37,429 nucleotides of DNA from Candidatus Omnitrophota bacterium (lineage in GTDB: Bacteria; Omnitrophota; Gorgyraeia; Gorgyraeales; Gorgyraeaceae). Made by a program: the position numbers and the translations under genes. The notes below the pieces were generated by a model. It was not told the origin of the DNA, did no database searches, and worked only from the letters and a program-made list of their open reading frames with translations. How positions within the stretch are numbered: the first letter of the stretch is position 1; each line of letters opens with the position of its first letter. Location of the stretch: assembly GCA_030691625.1 (NCBI GenBank), contig JAUYDX010000051.1:1-37429 (forward strand), read 5' to 3'. Positions 420 to 33,432 of the stretch are shown here, piece by piece.

Positions 420-656
420 TTAACAACGCCTTTTACCAAAACATGGCGGACTCGACTGCAACCAATTCGTACCGCATCCGAGATCCACGCTAAGATTATA
501 ACCCAACCTTTAGAACGTATACCATTATATCAAAAGTTATCTCAAAAAGTAAAGGAACTACGTTTATTAGGCATGACTTACGAAAAAATATCCAAAATAC
601 TAAACATTAACAAGAAAACAGCTGTGAGAGCCTGTCTTCATAAGCTTATCAATTGA
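420..656 (+). pseudogene. Remnant reading frame ending in a helix-turn-helix (recombinase/transposase-like tail)
   Basis: The plus-strand frame is open from after a TAA at 417-419 to TGA at 654-656 (79 codons). It has no ATG until late in the frame. The translated end contains LRLLGMTYEKISKILNIN followed by KKTAVRAC, a good helix-turn-helix of the type found at the C-termini of recombinases and transposases. Its plus orientation, lack of a start signal and position against the operator region suggest the 3' end of a lost gene. The parent family is not certain. Confidence 0.4.
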
Positions 657-1243
657 TGATGCAGACCTAAATTGCCGAATCGAATCGCGGTTGGATAATC
701 ACCTAAATTAAAATCTTCTGTCAACTGGGTTACAATTTTATATATTATCTTTTCATTAGTTTTAACTTTTTTTCGATCTATCTGCTCATAAATTTCTATA
801 GCTCTTTTCTTGAAAGCATCTGCTGGAAGCAATATCGCGCTCGCTAGATACTTAGCATTCCTATCCATCCTGTGATAATCTTCCGCACTAATATTCTCAT
901 AAATATTGTACATATCATCTATGTCGCTGCATTCAGCGTAGAGTTCTTTATGTAAAATTATATGAGAAAGCTCTTCGGCAAGCGTAAATCGATATTTTCT
1001 TTCTTTATAATCCATTAGATACTGGTCTACATAAATAGTTTTTCTTTTAGGCAATACAGCCGCCTCAATCCCATGAAATTCCGCAAGAGAGGAAAAAGGC
1101 AGTATCGTATATCTCAATTTGCCTTCCAATATATATTCAATATCAACTTCTAACTTTTTCTTATCATGGAATTGGCTTAAAAATTCTCCGGCTAGACTTT
1201 CTAAAGTAGGGATATCATAAAACTGGATTTTCGGTTTGCACAT
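638..1243 (-). CDS. ImmA/IrrE-type metallopeptidase, EExxH variant
   Basis: This 201-residue protein has the ImmA/IrrE layout: a small N-terminal region, then RFTLAEELSHIILH, where the zinc motif is normally HExxH. Here the first His is Glu (EELSH), a variant I believe also occurs in other family members. Family proteases cleave a partner XRE repressor, as ImmA does to ImmR in ICEBs1. The XRE gene lies 4 bases upstream, so the two form one transcription unit and probably a repressor/anti-repressor or toxin-antitoxin-like switch. The 3' end overlaps the recombinase remnant on the other strand by 19 bases. Confidence 0.72.
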   Translation of the reverse strand: MCKPKIQFYDIPTLESLAGEFLSQFHDKKKLEVDIEYILEGKLRYTILPFSSLAEFHGIEAAVLPKRKTIYVDQYLMDYKERKYRFTLAEELSHIILHKELYAECSDIDDMYNIYENISAEDYHRMDRNAKYLASAILLPADAFKKRAIEIYEQIDRKKVKTNEKIIYKIVTQLTEDFNLGDYPTAIRFGNLGLHHQLISL

Positions 1244-1247
1244 TTTC

Positions 1248-1616
1248 TTATATCTTTTTAATATCTTCTATTAATTTCTTAATCTGTCCCTTGGAAAGCT
1301 TTTTATTAGCCACTGTCCTTAACATCAAAGGCATCAGCTCAGATTCATTAACATATTTTACGATATCCGCTGGTGCCCTTTCTGGAGAATCCGCAGCCAA
1401 ATCAAAAAGTTTGGCCCATTCTTCACTATCTTTTCTTAACTGCAACGCCTCAGCAATGCTAAATAACATCTTAGTGTCACGAGGCGGGTTAATTTTGTCA
1501 TTTTCAAGATTGCTATAGTTAGAAGGTAACCAACCTATCTCCTTTGCAAAAGAACGCAAGCCATGGCATTTTTTTAACCTCAATTCCCTTAAATATGATC
1601 CAAATGTCTTTTCCAT
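1248..1616 (-). CDS. XRE-family helix-turn-helix regulator (ImmR-like partner)
   Basis: The N-terminal ~70 residues are a Cro/CI-type HTH (GSYLRELRLKKCHGLRSFAK, then LPSNYSNLENDKINPPRD). The C-terminal half carries no domain I recognise. The frame can be extended to a GTG at 1625, but the ATG at 1616 is preferred because a purine-rich Shine-Dalgarno (AGAGGGGGG) ends about 7 bases before it. The protein is co-transcribed with the downstream ImmA/IrrE protease. A perfect palindrome over its own -10 region suggests negative autoregulation, which is inferred. Confidence 0.78.
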   Translation of the reverse strand: MEKTFGSYLRELRLKKCHGLRSFAKEIGWLPSNYSNLENDKINPPRDTKMLFSIAEALQLRKDSEEWAKLFDLAADSPERAPADIVKYVNESELMPLMLRTVANKKLSKGQIKKLIEDIKKI

Positions 1617-1633
1617 TCTTATCACCCCCCTCT

Positions 1634-2180: not shown

Positions 2181-2471
2181 TGGCGGTGTGTTTACCGCTT
2201 TGTTCGAACTCACTTTAATCCCCTCTCCCTAAGGGGAGAGGGTAAGGGTGAGGGGGAATAATTCTTCCCCGCAAATTTTCAACGAGGCTCAACAGGCATC
2301 TGGCGGTCGCCGCCGCCCGACCGCCAGATGCCTGCGTCCTCGCACATCTGTAGGTAATAGGGCTTGTCCGCTATCCCGCCTATCATCAATCTAAGACACA
2401 GTGACGGCGTGATGCCGAGCCAGCCTAAGTTCTCAAAATATATCAGGCGAAAAAATGCTTTAAAGTTAAAC
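2181..2471. repeat. Long inverted repeat, left arm (A)
   Basis: This 291-bp stretch returns in inverted orientation at 5973-6331. Most of the match is near-perfect, with one diverged patch near 2385-2400. It contains no gene. Its internal structures are CCCTCTCCC-TAAG-GGGAGAGGG (2221-2242) and a GC-rich stem with 17-base arms and an 8-base loop (2293-2334). The outer edge is TGGCGG (2181-2186). The inner edge supplies the stop codon of the gene at 2466-3245. Confidence 0.85.
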
Positions 2472-3245
2472 CTTGGCTGGCCAAAAAATTCCCAATACCA
2501 TAAAGCTTTCATGATATAAACTATGAGATCCAACAAAAAAATAAGTATCTCTTTTTGGGCCCATTACTTGTTCGCCAAATTTCTTCTTCATTTTCTTTAT
2601 TATGTCTTCAGGAGATTCACCGTTATCACGTAAGTTTCTATATAATTGCCCTGCTTCCCAGTCTACAACTACCTGATTATGACCTTTACATCCTACTGAA
2701 TTGCAAATATAAGAATACTTAAAATTGCAGGGAATTTTTTCTAAACTGGTTTTCTTTTGCGAGAATAAATCTCTCTGATCTGCTACAGTTTGCTTCTTCC
2801 CTTTCCATTCTTCTTCGCCCAAAGTCACATCAAAACTAATGATCTCTTTTGGTTTAAAGATTCCTAATGACTTTTTGTTCAGACTTGCTTCTTCTATAAT
2901 CTCACACATAGAACCGCTTACTAAAGGCATGACATATTTTTTTCGTTTTGACCATGTTGGATCCTTATCGGTGCCAATAATTTCGCCTGGCTGAATATTC
3001 TCTAAATCTGGCCTATAACTTTCTGGGCGATTATCTTGTGTATGTTTTTGCACTCTTAATTTTATCCATTGATATTTATGAAACCATTTATCGAATGGCA
3101 TATCTCTAAATCGTACAGGATATAGCCTTATAAATTTATTATCTTCTGTAATCCCTGCGACGCAAACGGTTTCTCCATATTTTGTGCTTAGGCTTGGGTA
3201 TGCCTTTACTACAACTAAGATATTTTTCGTCTCCCAGTTATTCAT
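2466..3245 (-). CDS. Conserved hypothetical protein paired with DUF488
   Basis: This 259-residue protein opens with ILVVVKAYPSLSTKYGETVC and continues with FIRLYPVRFRDM, a pattern I recall from an uncharacterised family encoded beside DUF488 genes. Mid-protein, YICNSVGCKGHNQVVVDWE holds Cys and His residues that could bind a metal. The end, TYFFVGSHSLYHESFMVLGI, is also family-like. The ATG overlaps the DUF488 stop by 4 bases (ATGA), indicating translational coupling. The last two codons and the stop lie in the edge of repeat arm A, so the natural C-terminus may have been slightly altered. Its function is unknown. Confidence 0.7.
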   Translation of the reverse strand: MNNWETKNILVVVKAYPSLSTKYGETVCVAGITEDNKFIRLYPVRFRDMPFDKWFHKYQWIKLRVQKHTQDNRPESYRPDLENIQPGEIIGTDKDPTWSKRKKYVMPLVSGSMCEIIEEASLNKKSLGIFKPKEIISFDVTLGEEEWKGKKQTVADQRDLFSQKKTSLEKIPCNFKYSYICNSVGCKGHNQVVVDWEAGQLYRNLRDNGESPEDIIKKMKKKFGEQVMGPKRDTYFFVGSHSLYHESFMVLGIFWPAKV

Positions 3246-3688
3246 ATTATATGCCTTACTTCTATATTATCATTAAACATCTCCTCTATTGTAGAAGAGA
3301 TAGCCTGGCGATGGCATTCCTGATAATCTTTTTCAAAACACATAAGGCAGCAATTCAGTTCTTCTACTAAGTTTTTTAATCTCTGCAAGCTTTCTTCTTG
3401 TGTTCCTAAATAGGCCTGATATTTTTCTAAAAAAGCTTCAAAATCCTGATTATCTTTTAGATCCTGACGCAATTCGCGCGGAGTGCCTAATCTTTGGAGA
3501 TGCACATAATCTATATCGTTCTCCTGTAGCAATGTTTCTAATCGTGTTTTTGAAAACCCTGGCTTTCGGCTAATAGGATTTTGGCGAACATCTACTAACA
3601 AGGAAACATTGTTTTCTTTAAGCTTCCCCAGAAAATCTTCTGGCTTAAGACCCTGATAGCCAATTGTCATTAAAAGTCTATTATCCAT
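3242..3688 (-). CDS. DUF488 family protein
   Basis: This 148-residue protein matches the DUF488 pattern: LMTIGYQGLKPEDFLGKL near the start, LLVDVRQNPISRKPGFSK with the conserved DVR-NP-SR signature, LGTPRELR, and the late CFEKDYQECHRQ with conserved Cys and His. Family members are small soluble proteins with no settled function. It is the first gene of a tightly coupled pair with the gene at 2466-3245. A 42-base element shared with another gene's upstream region ends about 50 bases before the start. Confidence 0.82.
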   Translation of the reverse strand: MDNRLLMTIGYQGLKPEDFLGKLKENNVSLLVDVRQNPISRKPGFSKTRLETLLQENDIDYVHLQRLGTPRELRQDLKDNQDFEAFLEKYQAYLGTQEESLQRLKNLVEELNCCLMCFEKDYQECHRQAISSTIEEMFNDNIEVRHII

Positions 3689-3738
3689 ATGGATTATAAA
3701 TAGTTTACACTATAAATTTAGCTTTTGCAATTTACTGC

Positions 3739-3780
3739 TTCTATAATATAAGACACATCTACAGGCAATTTTCTTTCAAA
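3739..3780. repeat. 42-bp direct repeat, copy 2
   Basis: It matches 2068-2109 at 37 of 42 positions, same orientation. It lies in the 115-base gap between the cyclase-fold gene and the DUF488 gene, so it may carry the promoter for the DUF488 pair. Confidence 0.6.
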
Positions 3781-3803
3781 AAAATTCTTTGAGAGTACAA
3801 AAT

Positions 3804-4562
3804 TTAAGCTCTTGGTTTTACTTTTTCTACATATTTAAAAAAGTCTTGTGTATTTCTGAGTTTTATTATTGCATCTTTGTTTAAAAATAGTGATTCTTTT
3901 TTGTTAATACCTTTATTTATAAAAATATTCTCTATAAATCTTTCTTGTGTTATCGGCATATTTTTAGTTTCTTGCCCCCATAACCTAGAAAAAGATTCTA
4001 TATTAACGACATACATTTTTCTAGTTTGTTTTCCAAAAAATAAAAACCGATTAGTTTTAAAAGGTACGTCGTAGTTAACCAAAACCTTATTATCTTTAAA
4101 CCAATTAAAACTTTTGTCCGCCCCTTTCTTAGCTGCTTCATAACAAGAGTCTGATAAACAACACCCCATCCACTCCTGTTGTTTTTCAAGAGAACATGCT
4201 TCTCTTAATGCATCGCCTATAATTATATTTTTTTCTTTATCAAACAAAAAGTCTCCAAAAGCCATTGCTCCTCGAACAGGTAAATAAGGCGATTTCCTAA
4301 TGCTTAACAATAGCATTAACAATAGTGAACTCTTTATTATGCCCTCGAATAAAGTATCAGAAATTCCTGGTTCATGAGAATAAAGAATAAAAGTATCAGA
4401 AAAGTTAATCACATTAATATTGCTATTTTTTGTAATAACTTCGAGATCTTCTAAAACTTTGTTTTGTATTTTATATTCTTCATCTATGAAAATATTCTCT
4501 ACACGCTTGCCATAACCCAGAACATCAAAATACGCAACGAATCTTTTGTAGCTTTTATCCAA
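3804..4562 (-). CDS. Class III nucleotidyl cyclase-fold protein, function unknown
   Basis: The 252-residue protein has the core of the class III cyclase fold. Residues 8-16 (FVAYFDVLG) give beta-1 with Asp13, and residues 51-61 (VINFSDTFILY) give the beta-2/beta-3 hairpin with Asp56. These are the two metal-binding Asp positions of active cyclases. LPVRGAMAFGDF and IIGDALREACSLE follow, echoing the GDAVN-AARLE region. This single-domain family is widespread and largely unstudied; Pycsar cyclases share the fold, but no Pycsar effector is visible next door. It lies 26 bases downstream of the lipoprotein gene, probably in the same operon. Cyclase activity is a hypothesis. Confidence 0.62.
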   Translation of the reverse strand: MDKSYKRFVAYFDVLGYGKRVENIFIDEEYKIQNKVLEDLEVITKNSNINVINFSDTFILYSHEPGISDTLFEGIIKSSLLLMLLLSIRKSPYLPVRGAMAFGDFLFDKEKNIIIGDALREACSLEKQQEWMGCCLSDSCYEAAKKGADKSFNWFKDNKVLVNYDVPFKTNRFLFFGKQTRKMYVVNIESFSRLWGQETKNMPITQERFIENIFINKGINKKESLFLNKDAIIKLRNTQDFFKYVEKVKPRA

Positions 4563-4588
4563 GATTTAACTCCAATCTTAATTTACTG

Positions 4589-5671
4589 CTATTTTGGAAT
4601 TTTTATCCTTTGCACATACCCTTGTTCATTGAAAGTTACTGTTTCCTTCCAGTTATTTTTTGCCACTTCTTCATCTTCAGCTATAAGATTAACGTCAAGC
4701 AGCTTGCCGTCTCTTTGGACAGTAGTAACTATCAGAGATTCCCCTTTGCCTTTGTTCATTGCGTCTATTAGTTGAGAAAAGGACCAATTTAAAGTCTCTT
4801 GCTTATCCATTTTCACTATAAATTCTCCTGGTTTCAAATTTTGCTTGTAAGCAGGAGAATTAACTGCAATACCAAAAATATAAGGATAAAAATTATTTCC
4901 GTCTAATGTGCAAGGATGAGACAACCAGATACCAAAAGCTCCATCTTTTGTATCGTCTTTTTTTATTGCATCCCTATTAACTGGAAAGTTAGGGTTTCTC
5001 TTTCCAAATAAATACTTTAGCACAGCTTGCCCAGAAAGACGAATATCTGAAGTTGAAGTCGCCCCTACTACAGAACCAGACCATATAAGTTTCTTTAAAT
5101 TTTTATCAAATACATAAACAATGAAACAGGGATAATATGAACCAGTATAACCACCTGGCTTTGTAACTGTTATAGGTACGTACTGCCCTGGTGTCGTGGT
5201 AGTAGCCGTTCCCGACCCAGAACCAGTCCCATGAAAATAAGTAGAACCTATATTACCAGAAACATTATTATAACTATTAATAAATGTTGTTTGAGTCTGC
5301 CCAGGAACATACCAAGGAATAGTATATGAAGATGGTGGAATATACTGCGTTTTATATTCATTAGAATAAGAAATTAGTACCAAAAAATCTGCTTCTTTGA
5401 CATCATTAACATAGCTGTATCCTAACGATTCAAAGTGATTCCTTAGTATAAATAATATTTGCTTTTCTTCGATAGGATTTATTTTGTTTTCTTTATCTAG
5501 TCCCGCTTGTGGAAGTACAGAAAAATTTTTATACACATCGAAGCTAACCTCGGGATCTTTTTCGTACTTTACTGAGGGCGGAGTATTCATCCAAATCATA
5601 CCAGGCTTTAATGTAGTTGCGCATCCGCTAGATACTAATACGAAAAATATTAAACATATTAATTTCTTCAT
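4589..5671 (-). CDS. Lipoprotein with DUF4136-like and PDZ domains
   Basis: The N-terminus is a lipoprotein signal (LICLIFFVLVSSGC, acylated Cys at residue 19 counted from the ATG at 5677). The ATG at 5671 is preferred because AGGAG stands 8 bases before it. After the Cys comes a DUF4136-like segment (NFSVLPQ, LFILRNHFESLGY, ADFLVLISYSNEY). A Gly/Ser/Thr-rich stretch follows (residues ~125-170), then CFIVYVFDKNLKKLIWSG. The C-terminal ~100 residues form a PDZ-like domain (GIAVNSPAYKQNLKPGEFIV with VTTVQRDGKLLDVNL). It probably sits in the outer membrane facing the periplasm. The HTH gene lies 12 bases upstream in the same orientation. Confidence 0.72.
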   Translation of the reverse strand: MKKLICLIFFVLVSSGCATTLKPGMIWMNTPPSVKYEKDPEVSFDVYKNFSVLPQAGLDKENKINPIEEKQILFILRNHFESLGYSYVNDVKEADFLVLISYSNEYKTQYIPPSSYTIPWYVPGQTQTTFINSYNNVSGNIGSTYFHGTGSGSGTATTTTPGQYVPITVTKPGGYTGSYYPCFIVYVFDKNLKKLIWSGSVVGATSTSDIRLSGQAVLKYLFGKRNPNFPVNRDAIKKDDTKDGAFGIWLSHPCTLDGNNFYPYIFGIAVNSPAYKQNLKPGEFIVKMDKQETLNWSFSQLIDAMNKGKGESLIVTTVQRDGKLLDVNLIAEDEEVAKNNWKETVTFNEQGYVQRIKIPK

Positions 5672-5683
5672 ATTCATATTCTC

Positions 5684-5875
5684 CTATTTGATCAGCTCGT
5701 CGACAGAAACATTTAAAGCCTTTGCTATTTTAGCAACTGTAGTAATAGTTGGCTCTTTGGCAACTCCAGCTTCGATTTTTACAACTGTGGCTGTTGAAAT
5801 ATCAGCTAATCGTGCAAGTTTCTCTTGTGCCAATCCTTTTTTAGTCCTTAGTTTTTTTATATTCTCTGCGAGCAT
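5684..5875 (-). CDS. Small XRE-family HTH regulator
   Basis: This 63-residue protein is essentially one Cro/CI HTH: ENIKKLRTKKGLAQEKLARL, then ISTATVVKIEAG and PTITTVAKIAKALNV. AGGAG lies 5 bases before the ATG. It heads the minus-strand group running through the lipoprotein and cyclase-fold genes. AT-rich inverted and direct repeats immediately upstream are likely its own binding sites, which is inferred. Being only a DNA-binding domain, it may need a ligand-sensing partner or may act as a simple repressor. Confidence 0.8.
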   Translation of the reverse strand: MLAENIKKLRTKKGLAQEKLARLADISTATVVKIEAGVAKEPTITTVAKIAKALNVSVDELIK

Positions 5876-5894
5876 CTTTTCTCCTTGACAATAT

Positions 5895-5933
5895 AGTATA
5901 AATATATTAGTATAATAATATTGATATTATTAT
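5895..5933. promoter_or_regulatory. Operator-like repeats upstream of the small HTH gene
   Basis: A perfect inverted repeat with 10-base arms and a 2-base centre spans 5912-5933 (ATAATAATAT-TG-ATATTATTAT). Beside it, AGTATAA occurs twice, at 5895-5901 and 5909-5915. I see no convincing -35/-10 pair, although TATACT hexamers are present on the minus strand. Confidence 0.45.
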
Positions 5934-5972
5934 TTAATGCCTTATATCCTTAACTAATTATATAACAAAAAT

Positions 5973-6331
5973 GTTTAATTTTAAAGCACTTTTTCGCCTG
6001 ATATATTTTGAGAACTTGGATTTTTCTTTCTTCCGCTCAGGGCAGACTTTGGGTGCAGGCAAAATCTGCCCTGAGCGGAAAACTTAGGCTGGCTCGGCAT
6101 CACGCCGTCATGAGTGTTTTCACAGAAGTTAGGCGGGATAGCGGACGAGCCCTATTGCTCAGAGATGTGCGAGGACGCAGGCATCTGGCGGTCGGGCGGC
6201 GGCGACCGCCAGATGCCTGCTGAGCCTCGTTGAAAATTTGCGGGGAAGAATTATTCCCCCTCACCCTTACCCTCTCCCCTTAGGGAGAGGGGATTAAAGT
6301 GAGTTCGAACAAAGCGGTAAACACACCGCCA
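5973..6331. repeat. Long inverted repeat, right arm (B)
   Basis: This is the inverted counterpart of 2181-2471, longer by a 68-bp insertion (6018-6085). It carries the same GC-rich stem-loop (6178-6219) and the same CCCTCTCCC-type stem. It supplies the last ~24 codons of the serine recombinase frame. Otherwise it is non-coding; a 71-codon plus-strand frame here is only the repeat read through. Together with a short AT-rich stretch it fills the gap between the HTH gene and the recombinase. Confidence 0.85.
6018..6085. mobile_element. 68-bp hairpin insertion inside arm B (miniature element)
   Basis: Compared with arm A, arm B has extra DNA built from a hairpin with perfect 16-base arms (6031-6046 and 6065-6080, 18-base loop) plus a short tail. 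On the minus strand the extra DNA is flanked by AAGTT on both sides, while arm A has AAGTT once. This is what insertion with a 5-bp target duplication leaves. The exact boundary is uncertain by a few bases. Confidence 0.5.
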
Positions 6332-7759
6332 GTTAGGATAGGGAGCGTCTTGTAAGAAGGGACGGAAGGTACCTTCCGTCGAAAAAACGAGGCGCCGCTC
6401 TTTTAAAATAAAGTTCGAACCAATCTTTTCCAGAAATTCTTTCTGGGATTCTAAATTTCCCTCACGAACTACGCAATCTATTCTATTTAAGGTAGTTACG
6501 AAATCTTTCGCCTGTTCGAACCAATTATCGCCCCCATCAGCAAAATCTTTCAATGACTCTTGCAAGGTTTTCTTCTCGTTAATGAGCTTCTCTTTAGCCT
6601 TCTGATATTCTTCAAGAGATAAACTATTCTCAAGGTACATATCTATAAGCTTATTTATCTTATTATCAACGTTAATTATTGTATCGCGTAGATTTTGCTG
6701 ATGGGGGCGTGATGATTGGACAGCCTCAAGCTTATCTTTTTCTAATTCTTTTAATATATTAGCCGTCCAATCATCACACAAAGAAACTTTTTGAAGAATA
6801 GACCTAACCTGCTTAGATAATTCTTCTTCTCTGATATACTTCTGGCTGCAATTCGTGTATCTCTTAGTACATCTATAATATGTATGGCCTTTCTGGATTT
6901 CTGCAGTAATCATACGTCCACACTCGCCGCATTTCATAAGCCCGCGTAATATGAAATGTTTCTCAGATTTCTTAGGCTTACCGCGAGCCTTCATAACCTC
7001 CTGGCACTTATCAAAAAGTTTCTTTGTGATAATTGGTTCGTGCGTCCCCTCATAAATCTCGCCCTTATATCTAAATACACCATAGTATATTGGATTTTTA
7101 AGCGTATGCTGATATTGGCTGATACTCATAGGCTTATTCTTACATCCAGTAAGGCCTAATGAATTTATCTTATCTCGCAACTCTTTGAGGGCATAATTAC
7201 CCGTAGCATATAGGGCGAAAGATTTCGTAATGAAAGGAGCTTTGCCCTCATCGATGATAATAGTCCTTGTTTTGCGGTCATTGATATAGCCTATCGGTGC
7301 CCACTGAGGCCATATGCCCTTACTAAGTTTCAAGCGTATACCTCGCTTAATGTTTTCCGACAGGGCATCGATATAATATTTACTCTGCCCAAATGCGATA
7401 GATAGCATAAACTTACCCTGCGCATTATCATCGAAGCGATATGTAGGGAATCGTAAGTCCTTGATAATGCCCTGATCCACTAGGTAAATAATCTTACCGC
7501 CATCAACGCTATTACGCGCAAGTCTATCAGGATGCCAGGCTAATATACCATCAGCATGACCACGCTCTATCTGTAACAGCATATCATTAAATATAGGTCT
7601 ACCTGGTTTCTTGGCGGTCTTAGCCTCAATAAGCTCCTTAACTATAGATAAGTTCTCTCTTGTAGCATATTCTCTGAGTTCTTTGATCTGCGCTTCGATA
7701 GAGAGTATCTGCCTATCCTCATCATCAGTGGACTTACGGGCATATATAAAGTATCTCAT
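6251..7759 (-). CDS. Large serine recombinase (resolvase/invertase superfamily)
   Basis: The catalytic N-terminus is MRYFIYARKSTDDEDRQ with Ser10 as nucleophile, followed by ILAWHPDRLARN carrying the conserved Arg. A Recombinase domain follows (KRGIRLKLSKGIWPQWAPIG), then a zinc ribbon (MKCGECGRMIT ... YYRCTKRYTNCSQKYI), then a coiled-coil region. The ATG at 7759 is preferred over upstream ones (up to 7807) because it starts the catalytic fold and AAAGGAG precedes it. The last third of the 3' end lies in an inverted repeat (6326-6429) duplicated at 7851-7956, and the final ~24 codons run into arm B, giving an unusual RTHFNPLSLRGEGKGEGE tail. It probably drove integration or inversion here; activity is inferred. 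Confidence 0.9.
   Translation of the reverse strand: MRYFIYARKSTDDEDRQILSIEAQIKELREYATRENLSIVKELIEAKTAKKPGRPIFNDMLLQIERGHADGILAWHPDRLARNSVDGGKIIYLVDQGIIKDLRFPTYRFDDNAQGKFMLSIAFGQSKYYIDALSENIKRGIRLKLSKGIWPQWAPIGYINDRKTRTIIIDEGKAPFITKSFALYATGNYALKELRDKINSLGLTGCKNKPMSISQYQHTLKNPIYYGVFRYKGEIYEGTHEPIITKKLFDKCQEVMKARGKPKKSEKHFILRGLMKCGECGRMITAEIQKGHTYYRCTKRYTNCSQKYIREEELSKQVRSILQKVSLCDDWTANILKELEKDKLEAVQSSRPHQQNLRDTIINVDNKINKLIDMYLENSLSLEEYQKAKEKLINEKKTLQESLKDFADGGDNWFEQAKDFVTTLNRIDCVVREGNLESQKEFLEKIGSNFILKERRLVFSTEGTFRPFLQDAPYPNWRCVYRFVRTHFNPLSLRGEGKGEGE
6326..6429. repeat. Inverted repeat flanking the recombinase, left copy (C)
   Basis: It is the reverse complement of 7851-7956: 91 bases (6326-6416) are identical, followed by one C/TAA difference and 12 more matching bases. 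It encodes about 35 residues of the recombinase C-terminus (ILKERRLVFSTEGTFRPFLQ). It includes the perfect 20-base palindrome GACGGAAGGTACCTTCCGTC (6361-6380). CCGCCA at its outer edge (6326-6331) is shared with arm B. Confidence 0.9.
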
Positions 7760-7811
7760 AAAGGGCAAAGCTCCTTTCATTCGTGAGGGAAATTTAGAAT
7801 CAGTCATTTTG

Positions 7812-7839
7812 CTTTTGAGATAAATATAGATCTCAAAAG
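7812..7839. promoter_or_regulatory. Stem-loop ahead of the recombinase gene
   Basis: CTTTTGAGAT and ATCTCAAAAG form perfect 10-base arms with an 8-base loop, between the right inverted repeat and the recombinase start. It may be an operator or an mRNA leader structure; no T-run follows it on the minus strand. Confidence 0.4.
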
Positions 7840-7850
7840 TAGAAATGACT

Positions 7851-7956
7851 AAAAGATTGGTTTAAGAACTTTATTTTAAAAGAGCGGCGCCTCGTTTTTT
7901 CGACGGAAGGTACCTTCCGTCCCTTCTTACAAGACGCTCCCTATCCTAACTGGCGG
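7851..7956. repeat. Inverted repeat flanking the recombinase, right copy (D)
   Basis: It is the inverted counterpart of 6326-6429. On the plus strand it encodes the same recombinase C-terminal peptide (NFILKERRLVFSTEG...), which here would end as NWRRR and a TAG at 7963-7965 inside the tRNA. Its outer edge TGGCGG (7951-7956) is the 3' end of tRNA-Ser(UGA). It carries a second copy of the 20-base palindrome at 7902-7921. Confidence 0.9.
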
Positions 7957-8040
7957 AGGAGGTAGGATTCGAACCCACGAGGCCCTTGCGAGCCTAACGG
8001 TTTTCAAGACCGCCGCATTCGACCGCTCTGCCACTCCTCC
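7951..8040 (-). tRNA. tRNA-Ser(UGA)
   Basis: Acceptor arms GGAGGAG (8034-8040) and CTCCTCC pair, with discriminator G and encoded CCA at the 3' end. The anticodon loop CTTGAAA reads UGA. The long variable arm is that of a type II tRNA, and the T loop is GGTTCGAATCC. Its last six bases, CCGCCA, coincide with the edge of the recombinase inverted repeat, marking a likely attachment core. Confidence 0.95.
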
Positions 8041-10707: not shown

Positions 10708-10745
10708 AACCTCGTAGGTTGCGGTAAACCGCAACCTACGAGGTT
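10708..10745. repeat. Palindromic repeat family 1, copy a
   Basis: Arms of 18 bases (AACCTCGTAGGTTGCGGT and its complement) close on a 2-base loop. The same arm sequence recurs at 33382-33432 and, in altered form, at 30857-30891. It lies between the tRNA-Ser(GGA) gene and the protease gene end; no clear T-run on the minus strand. Confidence 0.8.
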
Positions 10746-20998: not shown

Positions 20999-21916
20999 AT
21001 GAGAAAAATACGGGTCGGGGTGGTGGGCCTGGGCAGATTAGGCGCCATACACGCTAAGATTTATTCGGCGCTGGATAGCGTAGAGCTTTCCAGTATCTGC
21101 GATATTGACGAAAATACGGCCAGGCCTATTGCTGAAGCGCTTAAAACAAGCTGGTCCTCTGATTATAAAAAGCTGCTGGATAATAAACTGGATGCCGTAA
21201 GCGTAGTAACCCCCACTATATATCATTACGAGATAGCGAAGTTCTTTCTCCAGAATAAAATCCCTGTACTCATTGAAAAACCCATAACAAAAACCCTGCG
21301 CGAAGCCGGTGAACTGATAAAGATAGCCGCTAAAAATAAAGTCATTATACAGGTAGGGCATGTGGAGAGATTTAATTCCGCTATCCAGGCAGTGGAAAAA
21401 CTTTCAAATAAGCCCAGATTTATTGAAGTGCACAGGCTTGGGCCTTTTACGCCCAGGGTAAAAGACGTAGGCGTGGTCCTGGATCTCATGATACACGATA
21501 TAGACATAGTTCTCGGCCTTACAAAATCAAAGGTTAAAACCATAGACGCCTTAGGCATGAAAATCCTCACAGACCACGAAGATATCGCAAACGCCAGGAT
21601 CCGTTTTAAAAACGGCACTGTGTGCGACCTGACAGCCAGCCGCGTGACAAGCGACAGTATGCGCAAGATCCGCATATTCCAGGACGACTGCTACATCTCC
21701 ATAGACTACATGGCGCAGGCAGCTGTTATCCACAGAAAGATAAATAACCAGATAGTGTCTGAGGAGATAGATATCAAAAAAGAGGCGCCTCTTACCAAGG
21801 AACTCGCGTCCTTTATAGACTGCGTTAGCAATAATAAAAACCCGCTCGTGTCAGGCAGAGAAGCTTATGAAGCATTAAAAGTCGCATTGGACATACTTAA
21901 AAAGATAAACAGGTAA
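20999..21916 (+). CDS. Gfo/Idh/MocA-family NAD(P)-dependent oxidoreductase
   Basis: 305 residues with an N-terminal Rossmann fold (RVGVVGLGRLGAIHAKIYSA), then PVLIEKPITKTLREAGEL with the EKP motif and QVGHVERFNSAIQ. DLMIHDIDIVLGL corresponds to the catalytic H-D region. Next to lpxB and an MsbA-like exporter, it could act like GnnA, which oxidises UDP-GlcNAc to make 3-amino lipid A precursors. That is inference; the partner aminotransferase gnnB is not in the window. The stop TAA lies in a 40-bp palindrome. Confidence 0.82.
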   Translation: MRKIRVGVVGLGRLGAIHAKIYSALDSVELSSICDIDENTARPIAEALKTSWSSDYKKLLDNKLDAVSVVTPTIYHYEIAKFFLQNKIPVLIEKPITKTLREAGELIKIAAKNKVIIQVGHVERFNSAIQAVEKLSNKPRFIEVHRLGPFTPRVKDVGVVLDLMIHDIDIVLGLTKSKVKTIDALGMKILTDHEDIANARIRFKNGTVCDLTASRVTSDSMRKIRIFQDDCYISIDYMAQAAVIHRKINNQIVSEEIDIKKEAPLTKELASFIDCVSNNKNPLVSGREAYEALKVALDILKKINR

Positions 21917-21950
21917 AGTAGGGGAGGTTTAAACCTCCCCTACTTTACCT
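21911..21950. repeat. Perfect 40-bp palindrome without spacer
   Basis: Arms AGGTAAAGTAGGGGAGGTTT and its exact complement meet at position 21930/21931. It contains the oxidoreductase stop codon (21914-21916) and ends 11 bases before lpxB. No U-run follows, so it is not a classical terminator. Confidence 0.9.
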
Positions 21951-30856: not shown

Positions 30857-30891
30857 AACTTCGTAAGTTGCCTACGGCAACTTACGAAGTT
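30857..30891. repeat. Palindromic repeat family 1, diverged copy c
   Basis: Arms AACTTCGTAAGTTGCC and their complement around loop TAC. Relative to copies a and b, paired C/G changes to T/A keep the stem intact. On the plus strand it is followed by T6. It encodes the last residues (LRKLP) of MnmG, whose TAG stop is in the loop. Confidence 0.75.
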
Positions 30892-33381: not shown

Positions 33382-33432
33382 AACCTCGTAGGTTGCGGCT
33401 TGCAGTATCATAAGGCCGCAACCTACGAGGTT
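33382..33432. repeat. Palindromic repeat family 1, copy b
   Basis: 18-base arms (AACCTCGTAGGTTGCGGC and complement) around a 15-base loop. The first 17 arm bases equal those of 10708-10745. It directly touches the stop codon of the PurF-like gene. Confidence 0.85.

What the first reader, a model, noticed from the sequence alone, without database searches (positions are those of the whole stretch)
6251..7965. Serine recombinase bracketed by inverted copies of its own 3' end: a self-preserving invertible gene?
Positions 6326-6416 and 7866-7956 are identical 91-bp inverted repeats, extended by 12 bp past one small indel. The left copy is the 3' coding end of the recombinase. The right copy encodes the same peptide on the opposite strand. 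Crossover inside the identical part would flip the gene body and still leave a full frame: the tail would change from the arm-B-encoded RTHFNPLSLRGEGKGEGE to NWRRR, stopping at 7963-7965 inside tRNA-Ser. The gene would then run convergent to the tRNA. The perfect identity suggests recent duplication or ongoing exchange.
Basis: partly seen in the sequence, partly recalled or inferred. Interest (0 to 1): 0.75.

Follow-up and report, generated by a model that had tools for sequence, protein, structure and literature searches.

The report
Recombinase gene built as folded junctions
A small mobile element inserted at the end of a transfer-RNA gene carries a recombinase gene whose own coding sequence is kept, across several bacterial phyla, as exactly matching complementary blocks that fit together into gap-free three- and four-way junctions, which suggests that the element passes through a folded single strand of DNA.

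Summary
The 91-bp inverted repeat is real and exact, but it is the edge of something larger. A relative's empty site shows that about 5.8 kb (2187-7956) is an integrated element. It sits at the last six bases (CCGCCA) of tRNA-Ser(UGA) and encodes a large serine recombinase. The two 91-bp arms are the P' half of its attachment site: one in attL at the tRNA, one in an intact, inverted internal copy of attP. Crossover between them flips the gene and regenerates both sites. Among relatives 58 genes run convergent to the tRNA and 3, including the window, run with it. Active switching is not shown. The larger finding is that the recombinase gene holds further exact complementary blocks of 12-23 nt. 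They are conserved in Omnitrophota and Patescibacteria, covary, suppress synonymous change (92% vs 47% identical codons) and close into gapless junctions. Outgroup recombinases and a phage relative lack them. Mismatches show no G-T over A-C bias, which argues against RNA folding. My best reading is an integrative element maintained through a folded single-stranded DNA stage; its function is inferred.

The parts
2187..7956 (-). whole integrated element, about 5.77 kb, bounded by direct CCGCCA cores at the tRNA end (7951-7956) and at 2181-2186
   Evidence: empty site in same-genus genome G008 (L158): tRNA-Ser|CCGCCA|TTAATACCAGTTTGAACTTTTTTAACC..., matching window 2180 downwards
7951..8040 (-). 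target tRNA-Ser(UGA); its last 6 nt CCGCCA are the core
   Evidence: ARAGORN; Rfam
7866..7956 (-). ITR copy 1 = P' arm in attL (extension 7851-7862)
6326..6416 (+). ITR copy 2 = P' arm of the internal, inverted attP; also the 3' coding end of the recombinase (extension 6418-6429)
6303..6416 (+). intact internal attP (X-CCGCCA-ITR), identical to the attP deduced from attL and attR
5990..6331 (+). X arm (P half) next to the recombinase, inverted relative to 2181-2454
   Evidence: exact blocks of 111, 57, 17, 30 and 28 nt with 2181-2454; 93% over 254 nt
2181..2454 (-). X arm at the far end = attR side
2455..5989 (-). cargo: unknown 259-aa ORF, DUF488, unknown 252-aa ORF, DUF4136/PDZ, small HTH; all in the tRNA direction
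6251..7807 (-). large serine recombinase; the conserved protein probably starts at 7759 (MRYFIYARKS) and conservation ends at the core (6326); the last 24 residues come from the X arm
7780..7801 (-). helix H1 arm (leader), pairs exactly with 6447-6468
7762..7781 (-). helix H2 arm (leader with AAAGGAG), pairs exactly with 7229-7248
7214..7230 (-). helix H3 arm, pairs exactly with 6496-6512
7028..7040 (-). helix H4 of the four-way junction, pairs with 6517-6529
7011..7028 (-). helix H5, pairs with 6777-6794; near-invariant sequence across Omnitrophota and Patescibacteria
6765..6777 (-). helix H6, pairs with 6709-6721
6690..6709 (-). helix H7, pairs with 6529-6548; 13 of 20 pairs show compensatory change

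Best explanation
This is an integrative mobile element of Omnitrophota, with a sister group in Patescibacteria. Its large serine recombinase inserts it exactly at the 3' end of tRNA genes. SHOWN: the inserted state is tRNA-core-ITR-[recombinase]-ITR'-core'-X'-[cargo]-X-core-chromosome. It therefore carries, besides attL and attR, a complete third site identical to the deduced attP (X-core-ITR), inverted relative to both, and the 91-bp repeat is the P' arm shared by attL and this internal attP. SHOWN: crossover at the core or in the arms would flip the recombinase segment and regenerate both sites, and both orientations occur among relatives. SHOWN: the coding sequence and leader contain further exactly complementary blocks that abut with no gap and close into three- and four-way junctions; these are conserved, covarying and specific to this clade. 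INFERRED: the blocks are kept because the element passes through a folded single-stranded DNA form. In that form X pairs with X' and ITR with ITR', so the two ends of the excised strand meet at the core across an internal splint and could be sealed, while the other helices compact and protect the strand. Repair of mismatches inside the fold would keep the arms identical. INFERRED: flipping is a by-product of this architecture (by homologous recombination or the recombinase), possibly also placing the gene under the tRNA promoter in the rare co-directional state.
For: Boundaries and empty site. Internal attP equals X+core+ITR. Same layout at many tRNA types in relatives. Orientation 58 convergent to 3 co-directional. 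Helices of 16 bp or more in the coding region: mean 1.97 per gene against 0.01 after codon shuffling. Junctions: 23 closed junctions counted against 0.15 for random placement, maximum 1; after removing one duplicate locus and three two-helix cases, 19 remain in 19 elements. Covariation on a homology-based alignment: 16 pairs and 40 cells changed on both sides against 6.9 and 10.6 in shuffles; slid controls 3-7 pairs and 5-9 cells. Synonymous identity 92% in junction helices against 47% in loops, p=2e-58. DNA folding of the junction region z=-7.9 and -7.6 on the two strands. DNA rather than RNA: single mismatches inside helices GT 28 against AC 25, first pair beyond helix ends GT 100 against AC 86, p=0.34, while tRNA stems in the same loci hold 5.9% G-U. 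Clade-specific: of 28 other recombinase loci tested, 27 have no exact inverted repeat of 16 nt or more in the gene, relatives on phage contigs (L165, L166) have none in the gene, and the tree makes the fold a trait of one clade with two apparent losses.
Against: No excised circle or single-stranded form was seen. The attP stem (about 216 bp in Patescibacteria) is long relative to the 20- and 28-bp helices that would close the same ring, so not every helix need coexist. Some Patescibacteria splints cross the terminal stems (pseudoknot-like). A double-strand-cutting serine recombinase acting on a folded attP would leave hairpin-capped chromosome ends, so the folded form is probably not itself the integration substrate. 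RNA parameters also fold the gene strongly.
Confidence: 0.6

Rival explanations
1. Self-preserving invertible gene: the repeats exist to flip the recombinase gene, for example as an on/off switch with the tRNA promoter.
For: Flip-competent geometry with frame kept; both orientations exist among relatives; both arms stay exact.
Against: 58:3 orientation bias; arms are att arms carrying the tRNA's own 6-nt end; does not explain the internal junction helices.
Confidence: 0.2
2. RNA-level fold: the mRNA, or the tRNA read-through antisense transcript, folds to control translation, termination or tRNA processing.
For: The leader with AAAGGAG (7762-7781) pairs exactly with 7229-7248; very stable RNA fold.
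Against: No G-U excess on either strand inside helices or at their ends, against 5.9% G-U in tRNA stems of the same loci; terminal arms of 90-140 bp are exact and would be RNase III targets (general knowledge).
Confidence: 0.2
3. Replication or amplification device like the yeast 2-micron circle: two inverted attP sites in the excised circle let the recombinase (or recombination) flip one half and convert theta into rolling-circle replication.
For: The deduced excised circle has two inverted attP copies, with the recombinase 3' end inside the repeat, as FLP lies in the 2-micron repeat (from memory); double rolling circle replication is recombinogenic (title and abstract of PMC3147054).
Against: No replication protein seen in the element; serine integrases normally do not join attP to attP (general knowledge); internal helices unexplained.
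Confidence: 0.12
4. Assembly artefact: short-read assembly joined or flipped segments at inverted repeats.
For: The window is part of a fragmented draft genome (101 contigs); many relatives' contigs break in the X arms.
Against: Same architecture in dozens of independent assemblies from different sites, with element-specific sequences; 58:3 bias instead of 50:50; empty site matches; the internal helices are coding sequence. The orientation of a single locus, the window's included, could still be wrong.
Confidence: 0.05

Closest known systems
Large-serine-recombinase integrative elements and phages (CcrB/XisF-like recombinases)
   Same: Resolvase + Recombinase + Zn-ribbon protein; site-specific insertion with attL/attR; cargo.
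   Different: tRNA 3'-end targets; internal inverted attP; gene-wide junction helices that distant recombinases and phage relatives lack.
CTX-phi phage: attP folded from two inverted sites in single-stranded DNA (PMC4246890)
   Same: Two inversely oriented att copies that pair within one strand into a double-stranded site.
   Different: Host tyrosine recombinases XerC/D there; here the element's own serine recombinase, arms of about 90-140 bp, and the recombinase gene itself is part of the fold.
Integron gene cassettes (attC recombined as folded single strands)
   Same: Patescibacteria elements carry a short variable cargo, mostly one gene, between conserved ends; folded-DNA logic.
   Different: No IntI or attC; each element carries its own serine recombinase and inserts at tRNA genes.
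Yeast 2-micron circle / invertible segments
   Same: Inverted recombination sites, recombinase end inside the repeat, both isomers.
   Different: Integrated element; strongly biased orientation; no evidence of regular switching.
Genome-scale conserved folding of small ssDNA viruses (from memory)
   Same: Coding sequence constrained by base pairing.
   Different: No capsid or Rep gene; here exact blocks close gap-free junctions.

Membership tests
Large serine recombinase integrative element | Catalytic Resolvase domain plus Recombinase and Zn-ribbon domains | tested here: met
Large serine recombinase integrative element | Discrete insertion with attL/attR and an empty site in a relative | tested here: met
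   (L158)
Large serine recombinase integrative element | Excised circle or integration activity | not testable with these tools
   no reads or bench work
Invertible DNA segment (inverton) | Inverted recombination sites flanking the segment | tested here: met
Invertible DNA segment (inverton) | Both orientations in one population | not testable with these tools
   no reads; across relatives 58:3
CTX-phi-like folded attP | Two inverted att copies able to pair in one strand | tested here: met
CTX-phi-like folded attP | Xer tyrosine recombinase and dif target | tested here: not met
   serine recombinase, tRNA target
Integron cassette | IntI and attC sites | tested here: not met
   the only recombinase identified in the element is a serine recombinase; attC sites as such were not searched for
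Structured RNA element | Match to a known RNA family | tested here: not met
   only tRNAs
Structured RNA element | One-strand G-U tolerance in conserved helices | tested here: not met

The most novel reading that the evidence does not exclude
A class of mobile elements in which the recombinase gene is itself a structural part of the element's DNA. The single strand folds through exact coding-sequence blocks into gapless three- and four-way junctions. Inverted attP arms form the terminal stem, and (in Patescibacteria) splint sequences at both ends of the cargo tie any cargo gene into the fold. This would be a natural single-strand DNA architecture used to move, protect or re-circularise genes.
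Probability: 0.45. Interest if true: 0.95.

Novelty: new variant of a known kind. Interest (0 to 1): 0.83.

Why it matters
The fold is directly measurable as closed junctions, covariation and synonymous constraint, and it spans phyla that are almost entirely uncultured. If it reflects a folded single-stranded DNA stage, serine-recombinase elements join integrons and CTX-phi among systems that use DNA shape, and the constraint reaches into a protein-coding gene. It also offers a concrete, testable route by which Patescibacteria and Omnitrophota carry cargo genes between tRNA sites. In practice, annotation pipelines would see only a "recombinase family protein" and miss it.

Tried and rejected
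Chance: rejected. A property of serine recombinases in general: rejected. RNA family: none. mRNA fold shown by G-U tolerance: not seen; an early tally (A-C 8, G-T 3) suggested the opposite strand, and more data removed that bias. CTX-like integration of the folded strand: set aside, because a double-strand-cutting recombinase would leave hairpin-capped chromosome ends. Internal helices as binding-site repeats for one protein: rejected, because different helices have unrelated sequences and only complementarity and junction closure are shared. Search for extrachromosomal or phage copies: no window-type relative in IMG/VR; Patescibacteria-type hits lacked the fold and terminal repeats; the best plasmid and phage hits were below 30% identity. 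A first pattern search had a wrong spacer and gave nothing useful. Literature searches found no description of such elements; only open-licence papers were searched.

Full report
Observation. The 91-bp exact inverted repeat at 6326-6416 / 7866-7956 and its 12-bp extension are real. The right arm ends with the last six bases of tRNA-Ser(UGA), CCGCCA. The ORF is a large serine recombinase. The conserved protein begins at MRYFIYARKS (about 7759) and its similarity to relatives ends at the core (residue 494). In the window the last 24 residues come from the next segment.

What it belongs to. A same-genus genome (G008, L158) has the empty site: tRNA-Ser|CCGCCA|TTAATACCAGTTTGAACTTTTTTAACC..., which matches window 2180 downwards including the downstream flank. 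The window therefore contains a precise insertion of about 5.77 kb between two direct CCGCCA cores (7951-7956 and 2181-2186). Read on the minus strand it runs tRNA-core-ITR-recombinase-ITR'-core'-X'-cargo-X-core-chromosome. The X arms (2181-2454 and 5990-6331) are a second, longer inverted repeat with exact blocks of 111 and 57 nt. attL is tRNA-core-ITR and attR is X-core-chromosome, so attP must be X-core-ITR. That sequence is present intact inside the element at about 6303-6416, inverted relative to both ends. Crossover between attL and this copy would flip the recombinase and regenerate both sites.

Relatives. About 70 relatives in Omnitrophota and Patescibacteria sit at tRNA 3' ends of many types. 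Of those with a called tRNA, 58 run convergent to it and 3 run with it: the window, L116 in the same genome, and L079. In Omnitrophota the arms differ in sequence between elements but are usually exact within each. In Patescibacteria the X arms enclose a short cargo, in nearly all cases an ORF on the strand of the tRNA and different in each element: DKNYY, methyltransferase, nucleoside deoxyribosyltransferase, Na/Ca exchanger and unknowns. The cargo is flanked by a conserved end of about 30 nt and another of about 75 nt, which are complementary to pieces of the recombinase gene. A genome of the same genus (G003, L159) has a remnant with the ITR start joined directly to an X arm, apparently lacking the recombinase.

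The fold. Inside the window gene lie exact complementary blocks of 22, 20, 17, 13, 18, 13 and 20 nt. Four of them (H4-H7) abut exactly and close a four-way junction. Across relatives there are 1.97 helices of 16 bp or more per coding region against 0.01 in codon-shuffled genes (a few loci are duplicates of one element). Closed junctions: 23 counted against 0.15 for random placement. Removing one duplicate locus and three two-helix cases leaves nine four-way junctions in Omnitrophota and ten three-way junctions, mainly in Patescibacteria; the latter join the ITR stem to two splints. On an alignment not chosen for pairing, 15 Omnitrophota elements show 16 pairs with changes on both sides and 40 such cells, against 6.9 and 10.6 in shuffles and at most 7 and 9 in slid controls. 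Codons that keep their amino acid are identical 92% of the time in the junction helices and 47% in the loops between them. Recombinases outside the clade, the Elusimicrobia relative L087 and the phage-contig relatives lack the feature. The tree places it on one clade with two apparent losses.

DNA or RNA. In a folded RNA, G-U is tolerated and A-C is not. Here single mismatches inside helices are GT 28 and AC 25, and the first pair beyond each helix end is GT 100 and AC 86. tRNA stems in the same loci hold 162 G-U of 2,739 pairs (the tRNA caller may hide other mismatches, so only the G-U share is used). Both strands fold equally well with DNA parameters (z -7.9 and -7.6). This favours pairing at the DNA level, or copying between arms, over a selected RNA.

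Mechanism. Shown: insertion, sites, orientations, fold and its constraint. Inferred: a folded single-stranded stage. In the excised strand the internal attP pairs with both ends, so the ends meet at the core as a splinted nick that ligase could seal; the remaining helices compact the strand, and mismatch repair in the fold would keep arms identical. The fold is probably not itself the integration substrate, since double-strand cutting of a folded site would leave hairpin-capped chromosome ends. I could not observe single strands, circles or flipping.

Comparison. By protein and insertion this is a large-serine-recombinase integrative element. It works like CTX-phi in having two inverted att copies that can pair (PMC4246890), but it fails that family's enzyme and target tests. 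It resembles integron cassettes in its variable cargo, but no IntI was found. I found no description of it in the open literature searched.

The flip idea is partly supported: both orientations exist, and the predicted convergent one is the common one. But the repeats are attachment-site arms, the bias is strong, switching is not shown, and the internal junction architecture is the more important finding.

Noticed in passing
L159 (genome G003, same genus), just after tRNA-Ser(UGA): Apparent element remnant: tRNA|CCGCCA|GTTAGAATAGGG joined directly to an X-type arm, as if the recombinase segment were lost.
   Followed up: partly
window 2293-2334 and 6177-6220: Strong hairpin (CAGGCATCTGGCGGTCG) inside both X arms; also found in L159.
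   Followed up: partly
window 2213-2260 / 6255-6300: CCCTCTCCCTAAGGGGAGAGGG repeat inside the X arms is also scattered elsewhere in the genome (contigs C14, C94, C97, C98), like a REP-type repeat.
   Followed up: no
window 21911-21950: Perfect 40-nt palindrome (AGGTAAAGTAGGGGAGGTTTAAACCTCCCCTACTTTACCT) between two co-directional ORFs.
   Followed up: no
window 10708-10745, 30857-30891, 33382-33432: Related hairpins (AACCTCGTAGGTTGCGG and similar) between genes, repeated far apart in the window.
   Followed up: no
window 638-1625: ImmA/IrrE-type peptidase (M78) next to an HTH protein, a toxin-antitoxin-like pair near the element's far end.
   Followed up: no
L163-L166 (IMG/VR contigs): Phage contigs encode members or relatives of this recombinase subfamily without the fold; L165 is 49% identical to a fold-bearing gene.
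   Followed up: partly
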